Assembly (NCBI RefSeq): GCF_047948215.1 | Contig: NC_134467.1 | Coordinates: 38,167,020 to 38,231,019, forward strand | Length of the DNA stretch: 64,000 nt | DNA from: Lycorma delicatula | Lineage: Eukaryota; Arthropoda; Insecta; Hemiptera; Fulgoridae | Direction of reading: 5' to 3' | Shown here: piece after piece, positions 1,500-57,110 of the stretch | How the letters are laid out: each line of letters begins with the position of its first letter | Numbering within the stretch: position 1 is the first letter of the stretch | The notes under the pieces: generated by a model | The model's input: only the letters and a program-made list of their open reading frames with translations | The model's database searches: none | What the model was told of the DNA's origin: nothing | Position numbers and translations under genes: made by a program

Positions 1500-1645
1500 A
1501 ATCTCATTTGTGTCATTAGAATCGATGGCATCATGACTGAGGCAATTCAGACTGAAAGATGTCTGTTGCTGAGGTACTGAAGATGACTTCTGGTAAAGCC
1601 CCTCAGGGCTAAGTACGGAGTAGGTAGAGTGGTGACCGTAAAGCC
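1500..1645 (+). mobile_element. Second R1-type LINE 3'-end fragment
   Basis: The block around 1550-1640 (GAAAGATGTCTGTTGCTGAGG, GGTAAAGCCCCTCAGGGCTA, GTGGTGACCG) matches the extreme 3' part of the R1-like element at 56540-56635. It abuts the gypsy remnant without a spacer, suggesting the LINE tail and the LTR element were juxtaposed by insertion or deletion. Confidence 0.5.
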
Positions 1646-9020: not shown

Positions 9021-9495
9021 GTATTCCTCAATTTTGAAATATGAAACCATTTCCATTCTTTAATATCACTGTGTATACACATTTTTATTCACTTTTACAA
9101 CAGACTGAAGTCCAGATGACTAACAATGAATTTATAGTCCACATGAATAACAATGAATTTTTATAGGATGTGAAAAATCTCAGACAGGAACTTGAACTAC
9201 TAGACAAGATAGAGATGTTACCAATCTGCCAGAGGTTGATGAAATTGTTTTAAAACCATTATTGAAAAATTCACTTTTTTGTTGATAAATTTCTTTCTTA
9301 CATCAAAAATACCTGGTATCAAATTTGTTTCCAAGTATTTTTTTTTTTTTGTCTACTATTAAGAAATCTGCAATTCTTAACAGTAGATGCAAAATTCATA
9401 ATAGTATTAATTTAAACACAGTTAAGTTAAAATTATTTAACTTACCTAAGCGATTTAAATATATATAAATTCATTATAGAATTTAACTTTTTTAC
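9021..9495 (+). other. 3' part of gene 1 intron
   Basis: AT-rich, ending in a pyrimidine-rich run and acceptor TTTTTTACAG at 9488-9497. A second acceptor-like TTTTTATAG near 9163 precedes 28 open codons but has no matching donor, so no exon is called there. Confidence 0.5.
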
Positions 9496-9497
9496 AG

Positions 9498-17639: not shown

Positions 17640-18855
17640 AATTGTTATTATGTCTGTGCAGGTTTGATGCTGCTATGTTAGTTTCATTATCTCTGTCCTG
17701 CTGTTAACCATGGCTGCTCCGCTTTCTGTTTGCACCAAAGATAAGCAACATTCAGCGATCCGTTTTTTGTGGTCGGAAGGTGTATCAGGGGCCAAAATTC
17801 ATCAAAGACTTTTGGTACAGTATGGGAACAGTATGTTGCCGCAATGGAGTATCTACGAATGGATTGAAAAACTCAAAAACAGTAGCACACGTGTTACACA
17901 CGACGAAGGAGCTGGATGACCGTTTACCGCCACAAATGAGGAAAACATTGAACATGCACATGGCATGGTTTTCTTAGACAGACGAGTAACTACTGATGAA
18001 GTGGTACATCATCTGCAAATTAGTCACGGTTCTGCCTACGAAATCATCCACAACAGACTTGGGTTTCATAAAGTCTTTGCAAGATGGGTCTCAAAACAAC
18101 TCACACAGTTGCATAAACAAATGTGCTTGGACATCTGCCAAAAACATCTGTATCGCTACAGTAACGAATGAGACATCTTCTTAGACAGAATCATCACTGG
18201 TGATGAAACATGGATCCATCATTACAAGCCGGAGAGTAAACGACAGAGTATAGAATGGAAACATCCAAATTTGTCCTGGAAAAAAGTTCAAGACCCAACC
18301 ATCCGGAGGAAAACTGATGCTTACAGTTTTTGGGACTTACAAGGCCCAGTACTGGAACATTATAAGGAAAGGGGCACAACAATAAACAGTGCGCATTACA
18401 GTGATATGCTTACTGCGAATCTGAAGCTTGCAATTTGAAGCAAACGCTGAGGACTGCTGTCGAAAGGTGTTGTGTTGTTGAACGGCAATGCCCGTCCACA
18501 TACTGCTGCCCACACTGCTGAAATGCTCCAGAAACTCAACTTTGAAGTATCGGCTCATCCTCTGTATAGTCCTGATCTTGCCCCTTCTGACTACCACTTA
18601 TTTGGTCCACTCAAAGGGCCATTAAGGGACCGTCGATTTACCTCAGACGAAACAGTGAAAGATGCGGTACATTCCTGGCTCGCAGCTCAACCGATAACCT
18701 TCTTTTATGAGGGCATCAGGAAGCCTGTGCAATGATGGACCAAGTGCGATGAAATGCAATGGGACTATGTTGAAAAATAATGTACATGTAAGTTTCCTAT
18801 TTGTATTGTAATAAAATGTATAACTACGTTGCAGATAATAATTGACTTACCCTTG
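17640..18855 (+). mobile_element. Mariner element with dead transposase
   Basis: Transposase starts at ATG 17710 (MAAPLSVCTKDKQHSAIRFL) with the HTH region over the first 70 codons. Frameshifts follow, then HLQISHGSAYEIIHNRLGFH near 18010, TGDETWIHHYKPESKRQSIE near 18200 (first Asp), WDLQGPVLEHY near 18340, LNGNARPHTAAHTAEMLQKL near 18480 and YSPDLAPSDYHLFGPLKG near 18570 (third Asp). The usual HDN of the second block is GN here, so the second catalytic Asp is lost, besides frameshifts and stops. The right end CAAGGGTAAGTCAATTATTATC (reverse complement, to 18855) looks like a TIR next to TA at 18856-18857. The left TIR is not recognisable. Confidence 0.85.
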
Positions 18856-19655: not shown

Positions 19656-20573
19656 TTAATTAGCAATAGTTTTATGAACATCATTAAAATGTTCGATTAA
19701 ACTGGATTTAAAATTAAATGATTTATGACATAAATCACAAAAATAGCTTTTTTCAGTGTTATGCACATCAAGATGTTTCTTTAAAGTAGATTTATGATGA
19801 AATGATTTTTCACAAATATTGCAATCAAACTTTTTATCATTATTGTGTATATTGATATGTGCGGTTAAGTAACTTTTTTGTGTAAAAATCTTCTGACAAA
19901 TAGTACAAACATATTTTTTCTCGTTTGTATGTATTTTAAGATGAGTATTTAAAGCGGAACTTTGTTTAAAAGACTTCTTACAAAAATTACAAATATAATT
20001 TCTTTCGTTGGTATGAATTTTAAGATGTGATGTTAAATGATCTTTACGATGAAATGATTTTTTACAAAACTCGCATGCAAATGTTCTCTCATTGGTATGA
20101 ATATTAAGGTGTGTAGCTAAATTACCGATTTGAGTAAAAGACTTCTGACAAAAATTACAAACGTACCTTCTTTCATCAGTATGAATTTTAAGATGTGTTT
20201 TCAAAGTAGAACTGTGAGTAAAAGACTTTTGACAAACATTACAAACAAATAGTTTTTCTTTAGTATGAATTCTAATATGGTCTGTTAAATTACTTTTTTT
20301 ACTAAATGTCTTTCCGCAAAAACTGCATAGAAATTCCCTTTCTTTAGTATGAGTATTGACATGTTCTTTAAAATTCCATTTATGATTGAAGATTTTATCA
20401 CAAAATTCACATTTCAATTTGACAACATCCTTAATTTGCACTGATACACTCCCATGACTATTTTCCATGTAATTTTCAGCAGTTACATCACTATTAAACA
20501 CAAAATGTTTTAACAGTAAAGAATCCTTCAAATTTTCTTTTGCAGAATATTCTGTTGTATCCATATCACTAAC
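19656..20573 (-). CDS. C2H2 zinc-finger protein, last coding exon (nine fingers)
   Basis: Encodes the C-terminal 305 residues of a nuclear DNA-binding protein, presumably a sequence-specific transcription regulator. It begins at 20573 after an acceptor (TTTGTTTGTCACAG) and ends with a TAA at 19656-19658. After an acidic leader (VSDMDTTEYSAKENLKDSLL) come nine consecutive classical C2H2 fingers, the first CEFCDKIFNHKWNFKEHVNT-H and the last with an H-X4-H ending, joined by seven-residue linkers (HTNER, HTKEK, HTDER types) rather than strict TGEKP. All Cys and His ligands are present. The frame remains open for 17 codons upstream of the acceptor, but the splice site and phase-0 joins to 26023-26121 and 42936-43064 give a 381-residue protein. 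The exon is intact amid dead transposons, so the gene is probably functional. A named orthologue cannot be given. Confidence 0.9.
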   Translation of the reverse strand, partial: VSDMDTTEYSAKENLKDSLLLKHFVFNSDVTAENYMENSHGSVSVQIKDVVKLKCEFCDKIFNHKWNFKEHVNTHTKEREFLCSFCGKTFSKKSNLTDHIRIHTKEKLFVCNVCQKSFTHSSTLKTHLKIHTDERRYVCNFCQKSFTQIGNLATHLNIHTNERTFACEFCKKSFHRKDHLTSHLKIHTNERNYICNFCKKSFKQSSALNTHLKIHTNEKKYVCTICQKIFTQKSYLTAHINIHNNDKKFDCNICEKSFHHKSTLKKHLDVHNTEKSYFCDLCHKSFNFKSSLIEHFNDVHKTIAN

Positions 20574-20874
20574 CTGTGACAAACAAAACATATTTGTATA
20601 ATACTTATAATGATCACATTTCACTGTTACATAGGTTCTAGGTAAAGGGGTAACCTACAATGATTTGAATTAGTCTCCTTTCATTATATTTCTTTTATTC
20701 CTACTTCATTACTTAAATAAATACCACTGGGAATGTCACTATTTTGAACTCTTCAAATATTTCTTAAAATTATAATGCCATCAAAACATTCCTGCAGTAT
20801 AATATAAGATGAAGCAGCACAGAATTATTAACATACCAAAATTTTATTGGTTAGTTTATGTAATGTATATATAC

Positions 20875-22153
20875 ACAAGGTGTGTTCAAAAAGTAATGAG
20901 AATTTTGAAATTTCGCGGGTTGTAGTCCGATTCTCGGGATTTTTTCGTTGTTGTATTGGTAAACATATCTGAAAAGTAACTGTACATTTTTATCCATATT
21001 GGGTGTTTAGTCTATTGTCAGCTGTCAAAAGGATAACACGTGTTTTGATAAGATTGGCAATTTTTTATTTGTATAAATAATTGATCAGAGAATTTGTATT
21101 AAATTGTGCTATAAGAATGGAATAAAGTGTAGTAATGTTTTAAAAATGTTAAATATTGGTTTTGGTGAGTCTGCTGTGAGTAAAGCAAGTGTTTACGAGT
21201 GGTATAAGTGTTTCCAAGAAAGTCGTGAAAACGTTGAAGATGACGAGCACCCCGGACACCCCAGCACATCAACAACCGATGAAAACATGGAAAAACTGAA
21301 AGAAATGACTATGAATGATCGTCGAATCACAATCACAGAAGTTTCTGATGATGTTGGTTTTTCAATTGGGTCATACCATGAAATTTTTTCAGATGTTTTG
21401 GGTATGAAACGTGTGACAGCAAAATTTGTTCCAAAATCGTTGAATTTCGAATAAAAACAGCGGCGAATGGATGCAGAAACGTGTCATAACAGATGATGAA
21501 ATACGAGTTTACGGATATGATGTCAAACTAAGGCTCAATCGTCCCAGTGGAGGCATTCTGGATCACCAAAACCGAAAAAAGCTCGACAAGTACGATCAAA
21601 TGTGAAGGTTGTGCTCACCGTGTTCTTCGATTTTAACAGCATATTGCATCATTAGTACTTGCCACAAGGTCAAACGATCAATCAGGAGTATTACCTACAA
21701 TTTCAACACTATTTGCATGAAGCAATTCAAAAAAATCACCCGAATTTGTGGTAAAACAATTCATGGCTTTTGCACCACGATAATATGCCTGCTCATACTT
21801 CATTGCTTGTTCATCAATTAATTTTTAGCCAAAAACAAAACTGTAATGATACCCCAGCCACCATATTCACCAGATATGGCCCTGTGTGACTTTTTTCCAT
21901 TCCCAAACATAAAAGACAACCTTAAAGGGCCGTCATTTTACAAGTATAGATGAGATTAAAAGTGAATAGCTGAAACAACTAAACACTATTCCAAAGATTG
22001 TGTTCCACAAGTGTTTTGGGGATTGAAAAAGCACAGGTATAAGTGTATATTATCTAATGAGAACTATTTTGAAGGGGATAACATTAAAGTAGACGAATAA
22101 ATAAAATTCTTTCCAAAAAACAAAAATTCTTGTTACTTGTTTAATATACCTCA
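20875..22153 (+). mobile_element. Mariner (SETMAR-like family) element, decayed
   Basis: TIR-like ends: CAAGGTGTGTTCAAAAAGTA near 20877 against the reverse complement of the segment ending TTAATATACCTCAT near 22153, both followed inward by AA(T/C)AGAATTTT. The transposase N-terminus is open over 116 codons (21104-21454: GESAVSKASVYEWYKCFQES, DDEHPGHPSTSTTDEN, SDDVGFSIGSYHEIFSDVLG). Beyond a stop at 21452, frames shift: SPKPKKARQVRSNVKVVLTV near 21560 and an HP...SPDMA-type third block near 21860. It lies in an intron of the zinc-finger gene, antisense to it. Confidence 0.85.
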
Positions 22154-27229: not shown

Positions 27230-27470
27230 CTCCTGAGTTTGGACATGTCAACCATCTATGTCTGTGATTGAGGGAAACATTGCTGTAGTATGAAAAATGC
27301 TTGAGACAGACATGTGACCTACCAACAAATAGAGGTGTCCTTGGGCATTAACGCACCAGGGGTTTGTGATATTCTGTGATGTACATTCAAAGTTAGAAAA
27401 CCTTGTACCCTTTGACTACCGTCAAGTGGTTTAGCTGCAGAGCCTCAACATACATGCATGTTGAAATTCA
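27230..27470 (+). mobile_element. Mariner N-terminal transposase fragment
   Basis: The sequence reads LSVIEGNIAVV, KMLETD, VTYQQIEVSLGINAPGVCDI, the N-terminal HTH region of mariner transposase. It closely matches 30110-30220 in the larger relic at 29760-30800, so both belong to one family. Confidence 0.65.
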
Positions 27471-29759: not shown

Positions 29760-30800
29760 CGATTAAGTTTATTTACAAAGAGCACTAAGAAATTATTGCA
29801 ATATGACAGAATGTATCATCACAGGTGGTTACAAGTTACTGGTTATTTAGATAGGTCCCAACCTGTACTGCAGCCACTCTAGTCAATTACTTTTAGCTGT
29901 ATTGGTGAAAAGAACTAGTGATGTCGTTGTGGTCGAAAACTGAATACAGGGCAATATTGGACATGGGCTAAGCATTAATCAGTGTTTACAGGAAATGACT
30001 TCTGTGCTTATAGAGGATTGTCTTCATCAAAGAACAATATTTAGGTAGTGCCGAGAATTTGAAAGAGGAAATTTCAGCCATGAAGATATTCCAAGGATGG
30101 TCGTCAGATCAACCATTTTTGTCTGTGATCGAGGGAAACGTTGCTGTAGTAAGAAAAATGCTAGATAGACAAGCATGTGACCTACCACTAAGCAGAAGGG
30201 TCCTTGGGTACCATATAACTTGACTGACGATCAGATGACACGTTGTATATCATAACAGCATGAAATACTGAAAAAATTTTAAAATGGGAAATCTTATATG
30301 AACAGTATTGCGACAGGTGAGAAAACTTGGCTTTATTATTTTGAAGATGAGAAGACTCCAATGGCTTTTCGAAAATCCTGATCAATGAAAAAGAAAATGG
30401 TGGCCGTTATTTTTTAATGGGAGAAGAGTTTTAAAGCAAGTTGTGTTGAAAACTTGGAAGATAGTTACACGGAAATGTTTATACTGACGAATGCCTGCCT
30501 AAAGTTGTCAAAGCTCTCAAGAAGTTACACCAAAACTCAAGGATAGGCACATGGATTCTTCATCACAATAATACTCCAGTGTTTACTCAGGATATTTGGC
30601 CAGCACTGGAATAAAATTGTTAAAGCACCCTCCCTAAAGTCCTGATCTCGACCCATGTAACCTCGCACTGATGCCCAGATGAAAGGGAGGCATTTTATGA
30701 GTCATGATGACCTCTTTAGAGGTTGGGATGATGAATGTGCCCACATTTCCGACAAAACATGGTTGAATTTCTTTAAAGACTGATTTCGAAGAATGGAGAA
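29760..30800 (+). mobile_element. Mariner element relic
   Basis: Transposase blocks in order on the plus strand, all separated by frameshifts: N-terminal region near 29950-30060 (REFERGNFS), HTH 2 near 30115 (LSVIEGNVAVV-KML), a KFKMGN segment near 30275, first Asp block SIATGEKTWLYYFEDEK near 30305 with the acidic residue after TG altered to E, second block HHNNTPVF near 30565 (HDN changed to HNN), third block SPDLDPCNLA near 30640 and the C-terminus near 30700-30790. Two catalytic residues are altered, so it is dead. Terminal repeats were not resolved. Confidence 0.75.
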
Positions 30801-30901
30801 GTTACTATATAAGTAAGTAAGAAGAATATATATATGTATAAATAGTACTATATAGTAAGTAACATATATGGCTTGAATATGTCACATGCAAACTATTTTT
30901 T

Positions 30902-31012
30902 ATGAATTTTATGTTACCGGGTCACAGATATTTAGGACCAGGAAATCCAATTGACAATGGTGAACCTATTGATGTAAATGATCAGATCGCCCAGAAATGC
31001 AATCTCATCTAA
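30902..31012 (+). pseudogene. Densovirus capsid (VP) N-terminal phospholipase A2 remnant
   Basis: A frame of about 34 codons after ATG 30911 contains YLGPGN, the calcium-binding loop of the parvoviral phospholipase A2 domain found at the unique N-terminus of the largest capsid protein. In functional domains a His-Asp pair follows roughly 20 residues later. Here the equivalent place reads AQKCNLI and then a stop, so the catalytic pair is gone. The 31013-31250 stretch that should continue the N-terminus is eroded with many stops and I could not align it. Confidence 0.7.
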
Positions 31013-31253
31013 GAACGCGCAACCACCTGAGTGATATTTGAACTGTAGATAGGGAAGCAATCTACTCTTTTGCTGGGGACTGTTCAGACTGGCAACTAGC
31101 AGAGCATTCTCAGTGTCACAGGCCTTACTACAAAATATATCGCTGAGAGTTTTGTATGAATACATTATCCTAATGTCAGTAAGAACATCTTGTGGAGCGA
31201 GTGATACGAATACTGTACAATTGGCAAAAAAAATGAAAATAGAAGGCAACAAA

Positions 31254-31862
31254 GTGTAAGAATCAGCAGTGGTAGGAAATTCTTCGGGAGGCGATGGCAG
31301 TATAACATCATTTGTACATTTACCGATTAGTCAATTTAAAAAAGGTATATTAGTGTTTACTCATTGTTTAATGTGGACTTGTGGTTATCAATTTGTACAT
31401 TTAGAAACCATCCATAAGGCTAATAATAATATAAAAATAAACTTAATCACTACTCCGTTCGCTTACTTTCCAGTAAATATTTTACTATGGTATTTATCTA
31501 AAGCAGAATTTAATAATCTACCGGTTACGGTGAAAGTGAAATGAGCATTAATCAGTATGTACACCGATTGGGTTCATATTACTATTTATTGTGAATTCGA
31601 CACAAGGACAACCTGCTAATAATGAACAATTTATGATTTGTGCACACGCATTTGCTTTGAAAATAAATATCAAGGTATAGATGTTAAATATAAATGGTCA
31701 GCAGATAATATCTGATGATACCAACTGCAGTCAGTCTAAATAATCTGAACTATGATTATGAATGGTATGGTGATAAAGCTACAGGATCGCCAATTGATTA
31801 CGCTAAAATACAGTGTTTGTTTGATAATCAATTACCATTAAATTTATATTACATCCCAACCC
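31254..31862 (+). pseudogene. Densovirus capsid (VP) barrel fragment, N-terminal half
   Basis: Open from 31254 to 31544, beginning with a Gly-rich leader (SSGGDGS), then SQFKKGILVFTH, CGYQF and LITTPFAYFPVNILLWYLS, which have the spacing and wording of the first strands of a densovirus capsid protein. After frameshifts and stops (31545-31715) the frame resumes in 31715-31858 (AVSLNNLNYDYEWYGDK, CLFDNQLPLNLYYIP). It is cut at about 31863 by an antisense R1-type LINE tail. The protein would form the icosahedral shell in a live virus; here it is nonfunctional. Confidence 0.8.
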
Positions 31863-32427
31863 CCGTAGGAGAAGACGCTCACCTTGTGACGATTTCGGTT
31901 GCCACACCCAACCATTCCTTGCATTGATGGGCTTTAGTGGAAGTCGTCTTATAGACCATCCACTGATTACACCTCACAGTAATAAGCCAGGCCTTGGTTT
32001 GGATTCACCATTGTAAATGCCTCGGTAGACATTTACATCAATGATTTTATTATTTTTTTTTAACTCAGCTTTTGCCTTTGCTGCAGGCCTCATATGGACA
32101 TTTTGAATGTCCTACATCGTTGCCCTTTAAACTAGCTAACCAAGTTCACGAAAGCATAAACACTGCGCCAATTTGTAAATGTTGCTTTGATCGAGGCAAT
32201 AGAAAAAACAACATACCACCAGCAATGTTGCTCGCAACAACGGAGTTACTCCTAGCTCTCTTAGTGAACACATTTTAGTTTATACCCCAGACTTAGGTCA
32301 AATTACGAATTCCGTCTGGTCCACTAGGGAGAGGTGGACAGACTTCCTACTCCCACTCAGCTCCATCATAGAGTCCTGCATGACATTTACTTTCTTCAAC
32401 CATAGTCGAGATGTTGCTACACCTCAC
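31863..32427 (-). mobile_element. R1-type LINE 3' tail inserted in the viral capsid sequence
   Basis: The minus strand matches 220-900 and 55950-56520 over its whole length (GATGGAGCTGAGTGGGAGTA near 32360, GGCAACGATGTAGGACATTC near 32120, ATGTCTACCGAGGCATTTAC near 32025, GTCTTCTCCTACGGGGG at the left end). It carries only 3' untranslated sequence, that is, a 5'-truncated insertion. A clean target-site duplication was not seen. Frames running across its left edge (31715-31927) and right edge are chimeric and not real proteins. Confidence 0.85.
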
Positions 32428-32531
32428 GGCTGGTAAACATTGTAATAATCAGGCAGGACATGACACTTTACCTGAAATAATGATGGAAGTTTGTTTATAT
32501 GGATTTAATAACGGACAACCTAATACTCCTA
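32428..32531 (+). pseudogene. Densovirus capsid (VP) middle fragment
   Basis: A short open segment between the R1 tail and the SINE: GKHCNNQAGHDTLPEIM and EVCLYGFNNGQPNTP. It continues the capsid reading direction and then meets the SINE at the 11-bp duplicated target TAATACTCCTA. Confidence 0.7.
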
Positions 32532-32816
32532 ACTCATCGGGTTGGTCTAGTGATGAACACGTCTTCCCAAATCAGCTGATTTTGAAGTTGAAAGTTCCAG
32601 CGTTCAAGTTCTAGTAAAGGCAGTTATTTTTATATGGATTTGAATACTAGATCGTGGATATTGGTGTTCTTTGGTGGCTGGGTTTCAATTAACCACACAT
32701 CTCAGGAATGGTCGAACTGAGATTAAACTTCATTTACACTCATACATATTATCCTCCGAAGTAATACGTGAACGGTAATTCCCAGAGGCTGAACAGGAAA
32801 AAGAAAGCTTTAAGCA
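32532..32816 (+). mobile_element. tRNA-derived SINE with 11-bp target-site duplication
   Basis: The left part is tRNA-like: an A-box-like TTGGTCTAGTGATGAACACG and a B-box-like GCGTTCAAGTTCTA about 40 bp apart. A tRNA-unrelated body follows, ending GGCTGAACAGGAAAAAGAAAG. The exact duplication TAATACTCCTA stands on both sides (32521-32531 and 32817-32827). Relatives: 46139-46407 (minus) and 49829-49963 (5'-truncated). The SINE inserted into the viral capsid sequence, so it is younger than the viral integration. Confidence 0.9.
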
Positions 32817-33640
32817 TAATACTCCTATCACATATGAATATTGGCTGCAAGTTTCTGTATGAAAACCACGTAAAACATATCCACCATTCAGAACAGATAA
32901 ATCAGCTATACATTTGAAAATTAAAAATAATTATATATGTGCAATTCCATTTAAGGCCAATGCTTTGTCTCCTGTAATGAGTGTACCGACTACATTTAGT
33001 GCTATTAATGTTTATCTTCCATATAAAAGTTACATCAAACAGTGTCGAAGTATGTCACATGGATTTTACAAATATGGCGGTAGTGTTTTGCCACCTTCTT
33101 TACATATTAGAATTTTACCTTGTAATAGTTTTGTTAACAATATGAAAAATGATAATATTCAAGAATCAGTTGCTGTATATAAAATAGATACAAAAATAGA
33201 AATAGAATATTCATACGATTTGTTGTACGCTAACGATACTTACATCTGCAAACACTTGACGATAAAAATGGAATTGATTTATCTGCTAATAATTAGGCAT
33301 GGGCCTATAAGTCGTACTTAGAGACATGCAGTTTAGTTATGGAAGATATTCCATTAAAGATTTGACAATCAGCAAGTGAAAGTATGCCGTCGCAACATCA
33401 CTGAAAGTGGATCAAGTCAACACAGTGCAGTGGTAAATACAAGATTCAGAGTCCTCAAAAAAGACATTTTAAAAAACACAAGTTCTTCAGATTGTGTGGT
33501 ATTCATGGTGAAACACCTGATCTTTATAATTGTTTATCATAAGAAATAAATATAACATTGATATTATTGTTTTATCTAATGAAACAGATATTAGAAAGTG
33601 GGATATGTAAAAAATTTAAAGGATGAAATAACTGTGTGTG
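32817..33640 (+). pseudogene. Densovirus capsid (VP) C-terminal fragment
   Basis: Resumes right after the SINE (YEWLQ-like region near 32840, then a stop) and is open at 32914-33321: NNYICAIPFKANALSPVM, SHGFYKYGGSVLPPSLHIRI, YKIDTKIEIEYSYD. These match the C-terminal strands of densovirus capsids in order and spacing. After 33321 the frame shifts and decays to about 33640, where AATAAA on the plus strand is close by (near 33650). The last part of the protein cannot be traced confidently. Confidence 0.75.
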
Positions 33641-33997
33641 GCGGTGGTAATAAATAAAAAGAAGATTTTACATATTGTATTATTTTTATTTAAAATAAAA
33701 TATACCATACACCTTCACTTTACGAAACTAAGTTTATTTATATATACATATTTAAATTACATACATAATATTTTTAATCTATATAATAACACATAATACT
33801 TATTTTTATTTAAAAAACAGTAAAAATATAGTTCTTTAAGTGTTGGATAATTTTGTATTTCCAATATTTTGTAATTTAAAATATATATTATCTGTAAAAA
33901 TTAAACAAAAATTTTATTTTTATTTTTCATTTCATTCATTTTTTCAATTAAAATCATTTTTTCATTCATCAATTTCAATTGATGTGATAATTTGGGT

Positions 33998-34506
33998 TTA
34001 TTTCTTTAACTCTACCTCCCCGGCATAACATACATTAAACCTGCTATAGACAGACGAGGCTTTTTTTGATCGACTTTTAATATTACATGGTTGCCAGCTG
34101 TATCTAAGGTAACGTATTTTAAACGAATCATTATCAGAAAATACATTCCTATTGGACAATAAGTGGCGTCTTACTTGGTATTTTTGGAGCGAGATTTTTA
34201 ACTAGCACCTTTAATACATAGCCTGCCATAATTTGTTTAATGTCTCTATAAAAGTATGGATCTAAATGACCCTCATTCCAAATATTAATATGCATATTAA
34301 GGCCGCCTATAAATGGAAGCTGTTCATAGCAAGACGGATTTATTATTGTACCATGATTTAAAAGGAAACTACCCATTGTGTAGAAAAAAAAGTTTTTCCC
34401 AAAATTTGATCGTACATAAATACAAAACTGAATTACATTTACCATTATATTTATTTATTATTAGATACAGATTTTAAAAAATCTTTCATTATAGTAATAT
34501 CAAAAT
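33998..34506 (-). pseudogene. Densovirus NS1 SF3 helicase domain remnant
   Basis: NS1 is the replication initiator and helicase of parvoviruses. On the minus strand, 34149-34445 carries the core of the superfamily 3 helicase: GKNFFF (end of Walker A), about 37 residues later INIWNE (Walker B), and after a further 35 residues KTPLIV (start of motif C). The Walker A loop is damaged: a one-base shift falls just before GKNFFF, with the preceding residues continued in another frame. A second shift follows KTPLIV, and sequence in the new frame runs to a stop at 33998-34000. The order, spacing and strand fit NS1, and the 3' end faces the capsid remnant. Confidence 0.85.
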
Positions 34507-34960
34507 CAAACTGGTACAATAATAAAATAAACAGTATATAAATCGTTTAATCAGTAGTTAACGTTACAAGCACGCTTCTTCACTAAGAAATTAAAAAATG
34601 AAACGTTATTAAGATATAAATCCATGAACTGTTCCACAGTCATTTCATTGATATGATAGTTTACACAGTACGTTACACACAACTTTATCATGCAACACCA
34701 ACGAGCCACATTTCCTTGATCAAGATTTTCGCACATACCGATGCATGTCGCCACCAATCCCTGTTGAAATCTTCTCCAAGGAGAACAAATTCAATTGAAG
34801 TTGGGTATTCCCACGTATCTTCTCTGACCGCCAGGAATACGATCTGGTCGAGATAAATAATTGATAATATGACACCAATCAAGTTCCTGGACCTTTGAAC
34901 ATCTATATACATTTCTAGATTGTTCCAATTATGAATAGTGAGAGGTTCATTACAACACCT
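34507..34960 (-). pseudogene. Densovirus NS1 middle fragment
   Basis: Two overlapping minus-strand frames carry collinear pieces: 34688-34912 onward (a Cys-rich CRCCNEPLTIHNW segment near 34950, then EMYIDV, LGEDFNRDWWRHA) and 34551-34757 (GMCENLDQGNVARW, MTVEQFMDLYLNNVSFFNFL). They sit where the region between the nuclease and helicase domains of NS1 is expected. The assignment follows mainly from position next to the helicase. The HUH nuclease signature was not identified. Confidence 0.6.
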
Positions 34961-35340
34961 GCATGTCGATCTGTTGTATGAACAGTTGTGTAAGTTGTTG
35001 AAGTGTTTCCACTTTGCGTTTGGGGTTTGCGGTAGCTGATGATAATGAACATATCAGCGTCCGCACTCCTGAATTGTTGGATTCATTGGAGGTTTGCTTG
35101 AATTCTTTTAAGAATTCCAGAGCAGTCGTTGTTGCCTCGAATGGGAACGATGTCGGAGATGAGAACAGGTTGGGATATCTGCTAGGTAGCTGATTTAAGG
35201 AATATGTGCCACAGTCTGCTGCCGGGACACAGCCCCAGATTCTCACGATTTCCATGAGAATTAATCTTGCCTGTCTAGTGATGTTTTTATGAATCTTTGA
35301 AACACTATAAATATTTTCAAATAATCTTCCCTGTGTGCAG
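34950..35340 (-). pseudogene. Densovirus NS1 N-terminal region fragment
   Basis: A 101-codon minus-strand frame (34950-35255: IVRIWGCVPAADCGTYSLNQ, KEFKQTSNESNNSGVRTL, KRKVETLQQLTQLF) with open continuation upstream to 35340. It is collinear with the downstream NS1 pieces and interrupted by a frameshift near 34960. No catalytic motif is visible, so identity rests on context. Confidence 0.5.
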
Positions 35341-35780
35341 ATTTGGGAGAAGCTATAAAATTTAGGTTATCGTCAGCAGGTCAATCACTATTGTCATTTC
35401 CAGTCTTCTTCAGTGCTGCATTTGCCATCTTCTTTGAAGAGGTAGTAGCAGTCTTTGTGTTTTTTTTTTGCTGGTTGACCGACCTGGGCAGTCGCATATT
35501 TCCTTTTATTGTTTGGTTTCACAACGGGAACCACAGCAGCTGGAGATGAACTTTCTACATCCATGGCACTTGTGAATCTTCTTGTAACGTGTCATTCAAA
35601 TCTTCAGGCAAAATAACAATCGAGGCTTGTGAATAATTTTCAAAACTGCAATCTTCAGGCTGAGTGTTACTGACCAGATCTAAAATTTGATGATACTCTT
35701 CTTCTCTACTTGTAAAACTAATGCTCTGAAAAATTTCTGTTTTGTAAGCAGGTCAAGCTCCTCCAATTCAAGCTAGATCT
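35341..35780 (-). pseudogene. Densovirus NS upstream fragments
   Basis: Minus-strand frames read EEYHQILDLVSNTQPEDC with NYSQASIVILPEDLNDTL (35700-35575), then from an ATG at 35563 MDVESSSPAAVVPVVK, NKRKYATAQVGQPAKKKHKD. Basic, low-complexity beginnings of this kind occur in densoviral NS proteins, but I do not recognise a domain. Assigned to the element by strand, order and continuity with the NS1 fragments; it could include an NS3-type frame. Confidence 0.4.
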
Positions 35781-35829
35781 CCTGTCTGTAATCAAAACAG
35801 CAACCCTTCAGCTCAAGTTTCATCTTGGA

Positions 35830-36600
35830 TAAAAGGAAGAAGCTGCAAGAGAATCAAATCCAGTGAATTATAGTAATGATTATGTTAATTTTAGATGAAC
35901 ATTTTTTTTTAAGCTTTATGGAAGGGAGTATTGTCATGATGAAGCATCCCATTGCCCTCACTACTACTGTGCCAAAAGTTTTTCTTCAGATGCCTCAGAA
36001 TCCTGTGTTGATAGTTATCCTCTTGGATGAATTCACAATCCAGACAAACTTTGAATCTTGATGAAAAAACTATAAGTATGCTTTTGCTTGATCTTAGTCT
36101 TGAGCTGCCTCGTGGATCTAGTCTGGAGGTTCCAAGAATTCAGACTGCAAATCCAACTTGCATCACTGCTGATGATTCTTGAAGTACAGTTTGAGGTTTC
36201 TTGGCAGATTTTGATGAGTTCTCCTGCTCAGAGGTCAAAAGCCTATTTATGAATTTGGCAGACAGACATGGCTGATAAAATAGTAGTTTGCTTCCACTAT
36301 TCCAGTTAATAAACAATGTCAAACCTCCTTAGGGATGATACAAAAAACCTACTGTGGAAGCTGCCAAATTTTCACTTTTTGGGACTTGACCATCTGTTAC
36401 CCCAAATCTCTTCATCCTTCAGCGATCTTCTACTCCTATAGAAACAGAAATGTTATTCAAAACAACTTGTCTGAGTGATTATTTCTTTGCTGCAGGTTGG
36501 GTGGATCATTTCAAAAGTTTTTGTTGCGGATTTCTCGAGTTTGATCCAAATGAATTTCCTTCTAGAGAGCAGTCTGTGCTGAAATTACAGATGCTTTAAT
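35830..36600 (-). mobile_element. Mariner transposase relic
   Basis: On the minus strand: INWNSGSKLLFYQPCLSA near 36300, NSSKSAKKPQTVLQESSAVM near 36200, a PRGSSRLRSSKSILIVFSS segment near 36090 (equivalent of the SRPKKARQ..S..M..VFFD region), FIQEDNYQHRILRHLKKNF near 35990 and MLHHDNTPFHKA near 35940 (second catalytic block intact as HDN). Frames are broken throughout and the third block is missing at the left end, next to the viral remnant. Confidence 0.65.
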
Positions 36601-36971
36601 GTACATGATCTTAAAAACAAGAAAAACATTTATTCAGAATGATGCTACTCACCTTGGTACCGTTTCTGTGCATATATGCTCATAGATTTTATCATAGAAT
36701 TTTTTTATTGCACACTTTATATATATTCTAAAACAAGCACTGAACTGAAATTACTGTCTTTAGTTCAGTACCACAAAGCTCATTAAGATTCTTTTTCATA
36801 GATAGGAAATGTAACCACAAGCATGGTAGTCAATCTGTCAGATTGTGGTATCCATTGCTACCAGTATTATTTCTTAAAATGTCCATACTTACTATTTACT
36901 ACTATTACTTATGATTACTGAAATTAATTTTTTTTTCTGAGATTCATATTCATCTATACTGTTAAATTTTA
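36601..36971. other. Intron sequence, nothing recognised
   Basis: AT-rich spacer between the mariner relic and the hairpin element. Confidence 0.5.
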
Positions 36972-37120
36972 TTTAAATTTATTAAATGAACCACCTAGTA
37001 CAGAATGCTTAATAAGACGTGTCTTACCTTAATTTTTCATGAAAGTACACTTCATGAAAAATTAATGTAAGATGCGTCTTGTCTAAGTGTTCTGTACTAG
37101 GTGGTTTATTTAATAGAATT

Positions 37121-37126
<6 letters not shown>
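36972..37126. repeat. Near-perfect 155-bp palindrome (hairpin, MITE-like)
   Basis: Left arm 36972-37043 and right arm 37051-37126 are inverted copies (left TGAACCACCTAGTACAGAAT, right TTCTGTACTAGGTGGTTTAT; centre TTTTTCATGAA-agtacac-TTCATGAAAAA). Only a few mismatches over about 72 bp and a 7-bp loop. No coding capacity. Confidence 0.9.

Positions 37127-37152
<26 letters not shown>
37127..37152. repeat. (TA)n microsatellite
   Basis: Pure TA run separating the palindrome from the start of the RTE-like LINE. Confidence 0.9.
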
Positions 37153-37156
<4 letters not shown>

Positions 37157-40100
37157 GACCTTGCCGTTGGTGAGGGGGCTTAAGTGCTCAGTGATACAGA
37201 ATAGCTGTACCAAAGGTGCAACCATATCGTAGAGGTATCTGTTGAGAGTCAGACTAAGGAATGATTCCTGAAAGAGGGCAGCATCTCCTTCAGTAGTTGT
37301 TAAGGGCGTAAGTCAGAACGACTTAAACGGCCATATCAAAATCACTCAGTCCTCTGAGTACTGCGCAGCTGAAAGCAATGAGAAACTACAGCTGCTTTTT
37401 TTCCAAAAAAAATGTAGCTCTCTACATTTTCATATAGCAATGATAGAGGCGCCTTCCTTGGTAAAATATTCTAGAGATAAACTAGTCCCCTGTTAAGAAT
37501 TTCTGGATGGGGACTACTAAGGAAGGGGTCACCTGAAAATTAAAAAATAACATTCGAGTCGGAGCGTGGAATGTTAGAAGTTTAAAAAAGGTTGGTAGGT
37601 TAGAAAATTTAAAGAAGGAAATGGATAGGATAAATGTAGATCTAGTAGGAATTAGTGAAGTTCGGTGGGAAGAGGAAAACGACTTTTGGTTAGGTGATTT
37701 TAGAATAATTAACTCTGCTTCAAATAATGGACAGGCAGGAGAAGATTTCGTAATGAACAAGAAGATAGGGAAGAGAGTAGAGTATTTCAAAATGCATAGT
37801 GACAGAATCATTGTAATAAGGATAAAATCAAAGCCTAAACCGACAATGATTGTTAACATCTATATGCCTACAAGCGCCCATGATGATGATGAGGTAGAGT
37901 GTGTATATGAAGAAATTGATAAAGCAATTAAACACATAAAAGGAGACAAAAATTTAATAATAGTTGGAGATTGGAATGCAATTATTGGAAAAGGGCAAGG
38001 AAGGAAATATAGTGGGTGAATACGGGCTGGGCAAAAGGAATGAAAGAGGGGACCGACTTATAGAGTTTTGCACGAAGTATAATTTAGTAAGTGCCAACAC
38101 CCAATTTAAAAATCATAATAGAAGAATATACACTTGGAAAAAGCCAGGCGATACTGCAAGGTATCAGATAGATTATATCACGGTTAAGCAAAAATTTAGA
38201 AATCAACTCGTCGACTGTAAAACTTACCCTGGAGCAGACATTGATAGCGACCATAATTTAGTGATAATAAAATGTAGATTGGGGTTTAAAAACCTGAAGA
38301 AAAGGTGTCAGATGTATCGGTGGAATTTAGAGAAGCTTGAGGAAGAGGAGGTAAAGAAGATTTTTGAGGAGGACATCGCAAGGGGTCTGAGTAAAAAGAT
38401 AAGGTAGAAAATGTAGAAGAATGGGAGAATGTTAAAAAGGAAATTCTTAAATCAGCAGAAGCGAACTTAGGTGGAACAAAGAAAGCTGGTAGAAAACTTT
38501 GGGTTTCAAATGATATATTGCAGCTGATTGATGAACGTAGAAACTATAAGAATGCTAGTGACGAAGAAAGTAAAAGGAACTATTAACAATTAAGAAATAC
38601 TATAAACAGCAAGTGCAAACTGGCAAAAGAAGAGTAGATTAAAGAAAACTGTTCAGAAGTGGAAAGAGAAATGAACATTGATAAAATAGACGGAGCATGC
38701 AGGAAAGTTAATGAAAATGCTGGGGTTAATTAAAAAAATAATAATGTGTTAAATAAAGAACACCGATTTATTATTCGAAAGGCAAAGTCGATAAGTGGGT
38801 GCAATATATTGAAGAGTTATACGGAGGGAATGAATTAGAAAATGGTGTTACAGAGGAAGAAGAGGAAGTCGAAGAGGATGGAAGGGGAGAAACAATATTG
38901 AGATCTGAATTTAAGAGAGCATTAAAAGATTTGAATGGCAGAAAGGCTCCTGGAATAGACAGAATATCTGTAGAATTACTACGCAGTGCAAGTGAGAAAG
39001 CGATTGATAGATTATACAAACCGGAATGTAATATTCATGAAAAAGGGGAAGTTCCGTCAGACTTCAAAAAAAGTGTTAGTCATGATACCAAAGAAAGCAG
39101 GGGCAGATAAATGTGAAGAATACAAAACAATTAGTTTAACTAGCCAATCATCAAAAATCTTAACTAGAATTCTATACAGAAGAATTGAGAGGAGAGTAGA
39201 AGAAGTGTTAGGAGAAGACCAATTTGGTTTCACGAAAATATAGGGACAAGGGAAGCAATTTTAGGCCTCAGATTAAAAGTAGACGGAAGATTAAAGAAAA
39301 ACAAACCAATATACTTGGCATTTATGGACCTAGAAAAGGCATTCGATAACGTAGACTGGAATAAAATGTTCAACATTTAAAAAAAATTAGGGTTCAAATA
39401 CAGAGATAGAAGAACAATTGCTAACATTTACAGGAACCAATCAGCAACAGTAATAATTGAAGAACATAAGAAAGAAGCCATAATAAAAAAGGGAATCCGA
39501 CAAGGATGTTCCCTATCCCTGTTACTTTTTAATCTATACATAGAATTAGCAGTTAATGATGTTAAAGAACAATTTAGATTCGGAGTAACAGTACAAGGTG
39601 AATAGATAAAGATGCTACGATTTGCTGATGATATTATAGTAATTTTAGCCGAGAGTAAAAAGGATTTAGAAGAAACAATGAATGGCATGGATGAAGTCCT
39701 ACGCAAGAACTACTGCATGAAAATAAACAAGAATAAAATGAAAGTAATGAAATGTAGTAGAAATAACAAAGATGGACCACTGAATGTGAAAATAGGAGGA
39801 GAAAAGATTATGGAGGTAGAAGAATTTTGTTATTTGGGAAGTAGAATTACTAAAGATGAACGAAGCAGGAGCGATATAAAATGCCCAATAGCACAGGCGA
39901 AACGAGCATTCAGTCAGAAATATAATTTATTTACATCAAAAACTAATTTAAACGTCAGGAAAAGATTTTTGAAAGTATATGTTTGGAGCATAGCTTTTAT
40001 ATGGAAGTGAAACTTGAATGATCGGAGTATCTGAGAAGAAAAGATTAGAAGCTTTTGAAATGCGGTGCTATAGGAGAACGTTAAAAATCAGATGGGTGGA

Positions 40101-48323: not shown

Positions 48324-49240
48324 CGAGGTGCTACCCAAAAGTTAGGGGAATATTACCATAAAAATAAAATAGGTTACCATAACTTATAATTTTCACTGTC
48401 TCCTTCAAAGTAATCCCTTTGGGCATTGATACAGTGATCCCAGCGTTTTTCCCATGATTCCATGCATCCCTGGAAGTCTGCAGGTGTAAGTGATCGAAGC
48501 ACGTTCTGCGTTTCTTCCTGAATCTCTTCAATTGTGTTAAAACGACGGCCTTTCAATCGAAATTTTATTTTCGGAAAGAGAAAAAAGTCGCACTGGGCAA
48601 GGTCAGGCGAATAGGGTAGGTGGGGAATTTTTTGGATGTATTTTTCAATTCACTACAGACAACTACGCAATTTTGTTTCTGGTGGCTGTCAACAGTTTCG
48701 GTACGAATTTTGCAGCAATGCGTCTCATGTTCAAATTGTCCGACAAGATGCGTTGCACGGACCCATATGACATTTGTACGATTGCACAAACATCATGGAT
48801 TGTTTGTCTACGATCTGCAACAATAGCCTCTCGCACTTTCGCCATGTTTTCCGGTGTTGCGCTTGTTGATGGTCTTCCTGAACGCTCATCGTCATCGACT
48901 GTCGTTCGTCCATCTTAGAATCGTTTGTACCACAAAAAAGTTTTACTTTTACTCTTAGCATTGTCACCAAATGCTTCCACAAGCATGCTATGGGTTTCTG
49001 CACCAGTTTTTTAAGCATGAAGCAAAATTTGATGCAGGTTCTTTGCTGTTCAAAATCTGCCATTTAGAACTTCGCCGAAGCAGTAAAACACAATTACACA
49101 ACCGCACGAAAGTCAACAATGCAGCCTCTCACTGTCACAATTGTTGGAACACTGATTCTCAAAGAATACTGTTAGCCAGTAATACCAGCAATTGTTCGCG
49201 CGTGAAATTCAAATTCCCCGAACTTTTTGGTAGCACCTCG
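48324..49240 (-). mobile_element. Internally deleted mariner (917 bp) with near-intact TIRs
   Basis: TIRs CGAGGTGCTACCCAAAAGTT (48324 on) and CGAGGTGCTACCAAAAAGTT (reverse complement, to 49240) differ at one base over 20. TA flanks both (48322-48323, 49241-49242). The transposase reads on the minus strand: N-terminus from 49063 (TCIKFCFMLKKLVQ), then MAKVREAIVADRRQTIHDVC and MSYGSVQRILSDNLNMRRIA (48845-48680). It then jumps, without the first two catalytic blocks, to a C-terminal part near 48600-48380 (FFLFPKIKF-type, then RRFNTIEEIQEETQNVLRSL). About 400 bp of the catalytic core is deleted. It could still be mobilised in trans if a related transposase exists. Confidence 0.9.
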
Positions 49241-49663: not shown

Positions 49664-49828
49664 CTGTCAGGACAGACTAGCTTCGCATTTCTCTTTTAAA
49701 ACCTCAGCCTAAAGTTTACGCTGAGGCTGTGGGATAGAAACAGGGACAGAAACTGTCTCCAGCCAGTAGACTGGCTGTCTAGCAGCCAGTAACAGTAAAC
49801 AGAATAAATGACAGATATGGGGTAAGCA

Positions 49829-49963
49829 TACATCTCAGGAATAGTCAAACTGAGAATGTACAAGACTACACTTCATTTACACTCATACATATCAACCTCA
49901 TTCATCCTCTGAAGTATTAACTGAACGACAGCTACCGGAGGCTAAACAGGAAAAAGAAAAGAA
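49829..49963 (+). mobile_element. SINE fragment (5'-truncated) with 16-bp target-site duplication
   Basis: Matches the body and tail of the SINE at 32532-32816 (CATCTCAGGAATAGTC, CTTCATTTACACTCATACAT, GGCTAAACAGGAAAAAG). AGATATGGGGTAAGCA (49813-49828) and AGATATGGAGTAAGCA (49964-49979) flank it, differing at one base. Confidence 0.85.
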
Positions 49964-53919: not shown

Positions 53920-56655
53920 CCAATGGAAATGTTGCAACTGGCATTTGCATTGGTGGCATCCTGACTGAGGCACGAACAAAGCAGAGGTCCGCCAAGCAAT
54001 TTGCAGCCTGGCTAGGAACAAAGCCCTTGGATATGATGGTATCACGGAGGAACTCCTTGTTCGCACTCTGCCTGTCATTCTTGGTGTATTGACTAGGGTT
54101 TTCAATAGGTTGCTGTTTGCTGGGCACTTCCAAACGTGTTGGAAACGAGGTGTTTTGAAGATGCTTTTCAAGGGTGGCGACAAGGAGCCCACTGTCAGTT
54201 CCTCATACCGTCCTCTGACGCTCTTGCCCGTAGTAGGTAAGGTTTTCGGGAAGGTCCTGTACCTCCGCATCAATAGTAAGTTAACTTCTAACCATATGGT
54301 GATGGACGATCAGTATGGGTTCCGTCCTGGTAAGGGCACAGAGGATGCGATAATTAGCGTTATGGATTTGGCTTCAGGCAGCGACTGAAAGTATGTACTC
54401 GGTGTCTTCTTGGACATATTCGGGGTGTTCAATAACTTGTGGTGGTCCTCAGCGTTGTTGCAGTTGCACGCGAGACGAGATTAGAACTCTCAATAGAACT
54501 GTCGTTCTTCGTGACAGCAGTTCTGAGGTAGGAAAGACCCTGTCTAAAAGTTGTCCACAGGGCAGTGTTCTAGGTTCACTCGTTTGGGTCGTTGAGTTCA
54601 ATTCTCTCATGTGATTGCGAATGCCTGGCGGCTGTCGTATCGTGGCTTATGCCGACGATGGGGTCCTGCAGGTCGAGGGGAATTCGCGTGCCGAGATCGA
54701 GCTCAGAGCGACACAAGCATGTAAGGTGCTAAGGTTGTGGAGTCTTCAGCATAAGGTGGTTTTCAGTGCGGAGAAAACCACTATGATGTTTTTGAAGCGC
54801 CGACTAGCCGCAACCAGCTATCCGCGGGTTGTGATGGACGGCCTTACAATTAGGTATGTCAACGTTCAGAAGTAGCTAGGTGTTATCCTTGATGAGAGGC
54901 TTCTCTTCAAGGAGCACCTCCAGTTTGTGGCGAAGAAGGCTATTGATGCCTTCTTCGGCGCCCGTAGAGTGATCCATCCCGATTGGGGGTTGAATTATCG
55001 TACCATGCGTATTCTCTACAAAGGTGTCTGTGAGGCCATTATGTTATACGCTGCGCCCGTCTGGGCTCATCGTTTGCAATTTTAGAGTTATATGGACATT
55101 CTGTTACGAGCCCAGCGTCTTCTGTTGTAAGCTGTTGTCAACGGTTACAGGATTGTTTCGCGAGAGGCCGTTACTGTGATCGCCAGCATGAAGGCAGTGG
55201 ATATTTTAGCTACAGAGCGTAGCCAGCGGTACATCTCTAAGAAGGAAGGCCTTCTTACATCACGGCCTATGCGGGAAATTGAAGACCAAGGTTTTGACTC
55301 TTGGCAAGCTAGGTGGAATGAATCTTCTACTGGTCGATATACGTATGGTATCTTTCCAAATGTTAGGGAATTGCGTGCTATTAGCTGGGTTTCCCCAATC
55401 AGTATACTACTCAATTTCCTGTCGGGACATGATGCCTTTAGGGACAGTCTAGCGAGGTTTAGGTTGGTTAATTCCGGCTTGTGTAGGGTCGATGACAACA
55501 CGGTGGGCCATGTCCTATACATCTGTCCGCGGTACCAGAGTTGGTAGGGAACTTGAGAGAGCAGACGCCTTTTTGGATCTGCGAGTTAACTGGAGGACTC
55601 GCAGTGAGTGGACGATTGTGGCTGGCTTCCTAAAATTCCTCGCCCAATGCAGGACGGCCGAAGGGATTTAGTAGAGTAGGAACCCGGGTGGCTAGGGTCC
55701 GCCTGGGCAGTTTGATTGACCGAAGGTAGGCGCTTCGGCAACGAGTCACGGTTAGTTATAAAAGGTGTCAATTGATTTGTTAAGCCGTTGGCGGAGTTGC
55801 GGCCGCTGCCAACGGGCATGGAATTCCTTGTCCCGGGTGGGTGCGGTCGCGCTTCGACGGGGGCATTTGTATGAGCATACGACACTGTCGGCGGGACGTG
55901 GCTGCATACCGTTTAGGTGGCATGCAGCGGCATTTTGACGGCGGTTAATGGATGAAGGTGAATGTCACGCGGGACTCCGCGATGGAGCTGAGCGGGAGTA
56001 GGCGTTCATTCTCCTTTCCCGGGTAGACCAGACCGGAGTCCGTTTAATCTTTTCACTTATGTATGAGTTATAAACGTTAGCTGGGTTCATTAAGGGAACT
56101 AGGTCTAAATTTCGTTGCGATCAACACTTTTAGTGGGGAAGTTGTTATATTGCCTCGAATTCGAGACATTCACGAAATTGGCTCATTAAATTGTTAGAAC
56201 TAAGCGCAGGGTCTTCGATCTTCCGCGAGTAGGTTTATAGCTTAGTTCCTGAGAGCAACGTCGTAGCATTAAGTGTCGGATGTCTTCTTCAGAAGGCAGA
56301 ATTAAAATCTGTTATCGGGGTTAACTTACCGATGTAGATGTCCCTCGGGGCATCTACATCGGTGGCATCTCACGAGGCCGGACTGAACACTGTGGAATGT
56401 GATCAGTTTGAGGGCGAGAAGATGTCCTCCGATTAAGCCACTCTTGGCTAGGAACGGAAGGGGTGGTGTAGCGACCTGACACGCTACGAGGCGGGATCTT
56501 CCCCCTCGGGGGGGGAATCGAGATGAGGCAAGAACAAGGTTGAGAGATGTCTTTTGCCTGAGGTTTTGAAGATACCTGAGGTAAAGCCCATCTGGGCTAG
56601 GTACAGAGGGGGTGACGTGGTAACCGGAATCATTACATGTCTTCGCCTATGAGGT
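53920..56655 (+). mobile_element. R1-clade LINE, 5'-truncated, with RT, C-terminal zinc finger and long 3' UTR
   Basis: RT starts near 53975 (EVRQAICSLARNKALGYDGI), then SSYRPLTLLPVVGKVFGKVL, DDQYGFRPGKGTEDAI (to 54388), a frameshift, VLGVFLDIFGVFNNLWW (motif A), CPQGSVLGSLVWV (motif B, 54550), AYADDGVLQVEGNSRAEIEL (motif C, 54650) and the thumb LGVILDERLLFKEHLQFV near 54880. From 55176 an open frame leads to NSGLCRVDDNTVGHVLYICP, the C-terminal CCHC zinc knuckle typical of R1-group LINEs. About eight stops or shifts disable it. The roughly 1-kb 3' UTR (55670-56655) is the source of the repeats at 1-905, 1500-1645 and 31863-32427. No sign of rDNA insertion, where classical R1 resides. Confidence 0.85.
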
Positions 56656-56749: not shown

Positions 56750-57110
56750 CACCAGCTTCATATGGATGCAGGGACCATCCCAACCTCATAGGGGAAGACA
56801 GCTGTCTTGTGATACTTTCAGTCACCACACCACCCTCCCAGTTCTTAGCCATGATGAGCTTTAACGGGAATCATCTTTCGCCCTCTAACTTTTTACACCT
56901 CGTAGTAATAAGCCAGGCCTCGTTGGGATGCCACTGATGTAAATGCCTTGGTAGACATTTACATCGGTTATTCTTTTCTCAGCTTTTGCCTTCGCTGTAG
57001 GCCTTGTCCTGGATATCTTGAACGTCCTACATCGTTGCCCTCTGAACTAGCTAAACAAGTTCGCAGAAGTATGAACCCTGCGCCTAGTTCTACTTTTACT
57101 GAGCCACTTT
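56750..57110 (-). mobile_element. R1-type LINE 3' tail, inverted against the preceding copy
   Basis: On the minus strand this matches 56200-56520 of the neighbouring element (AGGGCAACGATGTAGGACGT near 57030, ATGTCTACCAAGGCATTTAC near 56955, GTCTTCCCCTATGAGG near 56800). The two copies stand tail to tail with about 95 bp between, which includes a 25-bp near-palindrome (GATTAAGG-cgactgt-CACCTTAATC). Confidence 0.85.

What the first reader, a model, noticed from the sequence alone, without database searches (positions are those of the whole stretch)
30902..35800. Endogenous ambisense densovirus with both capsid and NS halves, inside a zinc-finger gene intron
Seen: plus-strand capsid pieces (YLGPGN phospholipase loop, Gly-rich leader, barrel segments) and minus-strand NS pieces with SF3 helicase blocks (GKNFFF, INIWNE, KTPLIV) converge near 33.7-34.0 kb. 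Known: ambidensoviruses have this tail-to-tail layout and encode these domains. Inferred: one integration captured most of a genome, later eroded. Many endogenous densovirus records are single-gene fragments, so a two-sided one is useful for dating and for placing the extinct virus.
Basis: partly seen in the sequence, partly recalled or inferred. Interest (0 to 1): 0.9.

Follow-up and report, generated by a model that had tools for sequence, protein, structure and literature searches.

The report
Decayed two-sided endogenous densovirus relic
A worn-out remnant of a parvovirus, probably of the densovirus kind, with its replication gene on one strand and the start of its coat-protein gene on the other, sits in repeat-rich DNA; similar relics are already known, so this is a useful but fairly ordinary viral fossil.

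Summary
The observation largely holds. The minus-strand half is a decayed parvovirus NS1 gene: one open piece matches a public 655-aa NS1-like protein (P0001), E 2.9e-23, 62% identity, and 343 of its 655 residues map in order to 35250-34001 with stops and frame changes. The plus-strand half begins with a VP1-type phospholipase A2 start (PDB parvovirus capsids E 1.3e-5; Pfam E 1.9e-4, just under cut-off). The rest of the capsid half found no parvovirus match, and two stretches of it, 31852-32432 and 32535-32806, are interspersed repeats. Both 5' ends face inward, as in ambisense densoviruses; that layout, not a named match, is why I call it a densovirus. One integration is the simplest reading. 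No terminal repeats were recognised. The zinc-finger intron is unproven: one exon with an acceptor-like edge lies 10 kb away; no exon search was run. Endogenous NS-VP densoviruses are in print for aphids (PMC5013282): a new member of a known kind.

The parts
30863..31009 (+). Start of VP1 with the first part of a parvovirus phospholipase A2 domain (possible start codon at 30902); a stop follows and the expected catalytic positions are not conserved
   Evidence: Pfam PF08398 E 1.9e-4, 22 bits against a cut-off of 23.9; 31 PDB sequences, all named as capsid, VP1 or AAV, best E 1.3e-5, weakest 0.0016; the catalytic motif is recalled, the letters are
31010..31851 (+). Probable further capsid-coding stretch, open frame broken several times
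   Evidence: Position and open pieces such as 31260-31541; no parvovirus match in Pfam or PDB: inference
31852..32432 (.). Interspersed repeat inserted in the capsid half (not viral)
   Evidence: blastn to 903-322 (70%), 56776-57092 (74%), 56185-55951 (71%) in the window
32433..32534 (+). Short stretch between two repeats, possibly capsid
   Evidence: Position only; the piece 32444-32611, which runs into the next repeat, had no parvovirus match
32535..32806 (.). Second interspersed repeat, SINE-like (not viral)
   Evidence: blastn: 32535-32766 to 46404-46175 (74%), 32690-32806 to 49823-49959 (72%); the SINE label is recalled
32807..33542 (+). Probable C-terminal part of the capsid gene, including the 152-codon open frame 32863-33318
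   Evidence: Open frame reached by 0 of 1000 same-strand shuffles and 1 of 500 both-strand shuffles; no homologue found: inference
33543..33997 (.). AT-rich stretch of about 0.45 kb between the two converging halves, origin unknown
   Evidence: GC 0.25 for 33001-34000; matches elsewhere are short AT-rich stretches; one small tandem repeat at 33923-33966
34001..35250 (-). Decayed NS1: remnants of the nickase half (35250-34769) and the SF3 helicase half (34546-34001)
   Evidence: tblastn of P0001 residues 146-307 and 446-630, group E-values 2.1e-15 and 2.4e-33; helicase piece E 2.9e-23; P0001 is Parvo_NS1 PF01057 E 6.8e-15 and matches AAV Rep in the PDB, best E 3.5e-7
34953..35366 (-). 138-codon open frame overlapping NS1 in another frame, possibly a remnant of an internal NS2-type gene
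   Evidence: Frame comparison; reached by 7 of 1000 same-strand shuffles and 11 of 500 both-strand shuffles; no Pfam match; NS2 identity is inference
35251..35770 (-). Probable N-terminal NS coding region (open pieces 35397-35591 and 35558-35752)
   Evidence: Position only; no significant match to P0001 or Pfam
30109..30691 (+). Left flank: decayed mariner-type transposase
   Evidence: tblastn with a window mariner ORF over 30205-30540 and 30614-30691, E 3.3e-7; 30109-30208 is 84% identical to 27248-27345
35909..36524 (-). Right flank: possible decayed mariner-type transposase
   Evidence: Weak: 36524-36408 E 0.002 in a small database, 0.036 in the window; LHHDN motif at 35930-35944; no Pfam match for 35912-36139

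Best explanation
This is a decayed endogenous viral element from a parvovirus, most likely an ambisense densovirus. Viral DNA, probably nearly the whole coding span, joined the host chromosome in the germ line in one event, without recognisable terminal hairpins today, and then decayed without selection through stops, frame changes, a probable internal deletion in NS1 and at least two repeat insertions in the capsid half. It most likely does nothing as a protein now. Shown: NS1 and VP1-start homology, opposite strands, inward-facing order, broken NS1, repeats between the two confirmed ends. Inferred: densovirus rather than another parvovirus (from layout), single event, identity of the capsid body, absence of function.
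For: NS1 match E 2.9e-23 and collinear mapping 35250 to 34001, with 21 control queries no better than E 0.14; PLA2 start; inward-facing layout as described for ambisense densoviruses (PMC12297876 passages); PLA2 at the very start of VP fits that paper's virus, where it spans residues 5-45; three stops and at least four frame changes within the aligned NS1 stretches; repeats within the capsid half.
Against: No capsid-body piece matched anything viral; François et al. note that some densovirus pairs share under 15% VP identity, so silence is weak evidence. No call names a densovirus: P0001 has no organism. No terminal repeat was recognised. A 0.45 kb AT-rich stretch separates the halves, whereas the NS and VP terminators overlap at the genome centre in ambisense densoviruses. 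Frame length does not support the capsid reading in 30900-31851.
Confidence: 0.82

Rival explanations
1. Two independent parvovirus integrations, or a rearranged pair of fragments, ended up next to each other by chance or by repeat-mediated rearrangement.
For: An AT-rich spacer of about 0.45 kb and repeats lie in and around the element; only the PLA2 end and the NS1 end are confirmed by search.
Against: Order and strands are those expected of one ambisense genome; P0001 has no further match in the 64 kb window better than E 0.10.
Confidence: 0.12
2. The plus-strand half is not capsid beyond the short PLA2-like stretch; the remainder is host or repeat DNA next to an NS1 relic.
For: Two stretches are repeats; no capsid match elsewhere; the longest open frame in 30900-31851 is on the other strand.
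Against: A 152-codon plus frame at 32863-33318 in AT-rich DNA (0 of 1000 same-strand shuffles; 1 of 500 both-strand shuffles) where a capsid C-terminal region is expected.
Confidence: 0.12
3. A co-opted element whose remaining NS frames, or small RNAs from it, still serve the host. It can hold together with the best explanation, except for the absence of function.
For: Densovirus-derived NS genes act in pea aphid wing plasticity and a possible Rep-host fusion is reported in whitefly (PMC10594914 and PMC12297876 passages).
Against: NS1 is broken by stops and frame changes; the PLA2 stretch ends in a stop. No expression data were available.
Confidence: 0.04

Closest known systems
Endogenous NS-VP densovirus sequences of aphids (pea aphid, Myzus persicae), as summarised in PMC5013282 (section 5 read)
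   Same: NS and VP sides of a densovirus together in an arthropod genome
   Different: Those were listed as non-degraded frames with transcription of both genes reported; this one is heavily decayed and interrupted by repeats
Large NS-VP sequences from Aretaon asperrimus and Halyomorpha halys (PMC5013282)
   Same: NS and VP together, 4.2 and 5.6 kb
   Different: The authors leave open whether these two are endogenous or exogenous
Degraded parvovirus-related sequences (31, in fifteen arthropod and seven flatworm species) with stops and/or adjacent transposable elements (PMC5013282)
   Same: Stops, truncation and neighbouring repeats
   Different: Here an NS side and a VP start are present at one place
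Ambisense densoviruses such as Bemisia tabaci ambidensovirus (PMC12297876, passages seen)
   Same: Converging NS and VP units, PLA2 at the VP start, SF3 helicase in NS1
   Different: This is a chromosomal fossil; genus not placed, no sequence of that virus was compared
P0001, an NS1-like public protein of 655 aa (source marked lgn, no organism given)
   Same: 62% identity over the helicase piece, collinear over residues 146-630 with one long unmatched stretch
   Different: Unnamed, no genome context; residues 1-145 and 308-445 not matched in the window

Membership tests
Parvoviridae (NS1) | NS1 with SF3 helicase | tested here: met
   the window piece on its own had no Pfam or PDB parvovirus match, the link is through P0001
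Parvoviridae (NS1) | HuH nickase motif | tested here: inconclusive
   The region aligns (35026-34769) but the motif is not fully conserved in the relic (motif as described in PMC12297876)
Parvoviridae (VP1) | Phospholipase A2 domain in VP1 | tested here: met
   first part of the domain only, Pfam score 1.9 bits under its cut-off; the piece expected to follow (31042-31143) had no parvovirus match
Densovirinae capsid | Capsid body domain (Denso_VP4-type) | tested here: inconclusive
   No parvovirus match for any other capsid-side piece in Pfam, PDB or protein search; AlphaFold models of two pieces too poor to use, mean pLDDT 40 and 50
Ambisense densovirus | NS and VP on opposite strands, converging | tested here: met
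   VP1 start at 30.9 kb on plus, NS1 from 35.25 to 34.0 kb on minus; only the VP start is confirmed by search
Ambisense densovirus | Inverted terminal repeats | tested here: not met
   No shared inverted 9-mer between 30600-30940 and 35700-36200 and no listed inverted pair joining the two ends; a strongly diverged repeat would be missed. Filed as a relic of such a virus, not as one
Ambisense densovirus genera | Genus placement by NS1 helicase tree | not tested
Endogenous viral element | Non-viral flanks on both sides and decay of viral genes | tested here: met
   Left mariner-type sequence (E 3.3e-7); right flank weaker (E 0.002), with a retroelement-type endonuclease frame at 37537-38016; decay. 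Assembly junctions were not checked with reads
Insertion in a zinc-finger gene intron | Exons of one gene on both sides | tested here: inconclusive
   Nine-finger open frame 19659-20654 with acceptor-like edge at 20574; no exon search was run on the other side

The most novel reading that the evidence does not exclude
The relic derives from an undescribed ambisense densovirus lineage with a VP1 phospholipase at the very start and an unusually long AT-rich centre, and its overlapping second NS frame (34953-35366, 138 codons) has stayed open while the NS1 frame broke because the host keeps using it.
Probability: 0.05. Interest if true: 0.55.

Novelty: new member of a known kind. Interest (0 to 1): 0.27.

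Why it matters
A relic carrying the NS gene and the VP start gives two markers of one past infection and, once the host and its relatives are known, a datable insertion with nested repeats. It also shows how repeat insertions inside such a relic can be mistaken for capsid segments. It does not change what is known about densovirus endogenisation.

Tried and rejected
Led nowhere: scans of viral contigs with the NS, PLA2 and capsid pieces and with P0001 (stretches matched patterns, none a relative by tblastn), a DNA pattern scan (5 stretches, not examined further), genome contigs with one NS-side piece and with P0001 (none a relative), the first NS protein search, limited to short candidates (none), the capsid protein search (0 of 39 candidates at E<=1), and single-sequence structure models (too poor; no fold search was made). 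The genome search gave no answer in 8 of 8 tries, so the host genome, copy number and empty sites were not examined. The host organism is unknown to me.

Rejected: chance for the NS half (controls); the palindrome 36946-37149 as a viral hairpin (about 1.2 kb from the relic and without a partner at the left end); a single mariner split by the virus (the two flanking mariner-like pieces have opposite orientations; the right one is weakly supported).

Unsupported by any search: capsid resemblance of 31260-31541, 32863-33318 and 33405-33539 rests on my recall and on position. The phospholipase catalytic motif and the SINE label are also recalled.
Full report
What was checked. The finding claims plus-strand capsid pieces and minus-strand NS pieces converging near 33.7-34.0 kb. 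The motifs named are there: YLGPG at 30929-30943 on plus (the N follows) and GKNFF at 34386-34400 on minus.

NS half. The open piece 34152-34454 on minus had no Pfam hit to a parvovirus family (only SH3_CYT4, E 0.15) and no parvovirus hit in the PDB (one unrelated chain, E 0.76). A protein search of that piece, padded with X to pass the length filter, found one match among 12 candidates: P0001, 655 aa, E 2.9e-23, 62% identity over 83% of the piece. P0001 is an NS1: Parvo_NS1 PF01057 E 6.8e-15, and it matches AAV Rep proteins in the PDB, best E 3.5e-7. Mapped on the window, P0001 residues 146-215, 220-307 and 446-630 (343 of 655 residues) fall in order from 35250 to 34001 on minus, in frames -2, -1, -1, -2, -3, -1, with three stops inside the aligned stretches; group E-values 2.1e-15 and 2.4e-33. 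Residues 1-145 and 308-445 have no significant match; the space left for 308-445 is about 220 bases, so part is probably deleted. One reversed and 20 shuffled versions of P0001 gave nothing better than E 0.14.

Capsid half. The piece 30863-31009 matches the phospholipase A2 family PF08398 (E 1.9e-4; 22 bits, cut-off 23.9) and 31 PDB sequences, all named as capsid, VP1 or AAV, best E 1.3e-5. After that, nothing: no other capsid-side piece matched a parvovirus family, chain or protein. Some densovirus pairs share under 15% VP identity (PMC5013282 passages), so this is weak evidence against. The 152-codon frame at 32863-33318 was reached by 0 of 1000 same-strand shuffles and by 1 of 500 shuffles when both strands count. 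In 30900-31851 the longest frame is on the other strand (132 codons, 8 of 1000 same-strand shuffles), while the plus frame of 94 codons was reached by 34 of 1000. Single-sequence models of two pieces were too poor to use.

Repeats inside the relic. 31852-32432 has relatives at 903-322, 56776-57092 and 56185-55951, and 32535-32806 at 46404-46175 and 49823-49959. Open frames in that part, for example 32045-32275 (wholly) and 32384-32611 (partly), are repeat sequence. On the single-integration reading they are younger than the integration.

Flanks and ends. The left flank holds a decayed mariner-type transposase (E 3.3e-7), the right flank a weaker match in the opposite orientation (E 0.002). No inverted 9-mer is shared between 30600-30940 and 35700-36200; the only direct repeat of nine or more bases there starts at 30701 and 35933, in or beside the mariner-like sequence. 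Shorter target duplications were not tested. The possible VP start codon at 30902 (sequence), with the PLA2 motif right behind it, fits a described ambisense densovirus whose PLA2 spans VP residues 5-45 (PMC12297876 passages), so the VP 5' end may be complete.

Overlapping frame. The 138-codon frame 34953-35366 on minus overlaps the NS1-homologous stretch 35250-35038 but lies in another frame. It was reached by 7 of 1000 same-strand shuffles and 11 of 500 both-strand shuffles. An internal NS2 frame is described for an ambisense densovirus. This is suggestive only.

The zinc-finger gene. A nine-finger C2H2 open frame lies at 19659-20654 on minus, with an acceptor-like edge at 20574. The relic is about 10 kb upstream of it. 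I ran no exon search on the far side of the relic, so 'intron' is open.

What it most likely is. One integration of an ambisense densovirus, later decayed, is the best reading (0.82). The two confirmed ends, their inward layout and the decay of NS1 are shown; densovirus rather than another parvovirus, the capsid body, the single event and the lack of function are inferred.

Novelty. Four large NS-VP sequences in arthropods are in print, two of them integrated in aphid genomes and two of open status, as are 31 degraded parvovirus-related sequences with stops and/or adjacent transposable elements (PMC5013282, section 5 read). Further densovirus relics in aphids and whitefly were seen in passages (PMC10594914, PMC12297876). 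Literature searches: (listings seen). I do not claim that this locus is absent from print, since the host is unknown.

Noticed in passing
31852-32432 and 32535-32806: Interspersed repeats in the capsid half; other copies in the window are 70-74% identical.
   Followed up: partly
34953-35366 (-): 138-codon frame overlapping NS1 in a different frame, possibly a remnant of an internal NS2-type gene.
   Followed up: partly
33543-33997: AT-rich stretch between the two converging halves, origin unexplained.
   Followed up: partly
36946-37149: Palindrome with arms of 66 bases (74% complementary) and an inner pair of 30 bases (90%), foldback-element-like; apart from its AT microsatellite no second copy was found in the window.
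   Followed up: partly
19659-20654 (-): Nine C2H2 zinc fingers in one open frame with an acceptor-like edge at 20574.
   Followed up: partly
37537-38404 (+): Endonuclease-type frames of a retroelement (Exo_endo_phos E 2e-06, above its cut-off; Exo_endo_phos_2 E 0.003, below it).
   Followed up: no
53969-54385 (+) and 1628-2011 (+): Retroelement frames: RVT_1 E 1.9e-5 (below its cut-off) and RT_RNaseH_2 E 4.5e-7.
   Followed up: no
59027-59692 (-), 21077-21451 (+), 48491-49063 (-), 17746-18717 (+): Several mariner-type transposase copies; the first keeps a 222-codon open frame.
   Followed up: partly
9431-11821 (+): 797-codon open frame of repetitive acidic and asparagine/lysine-rich sequence without a Pfam match at E<=0.01.
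   Followed up: no
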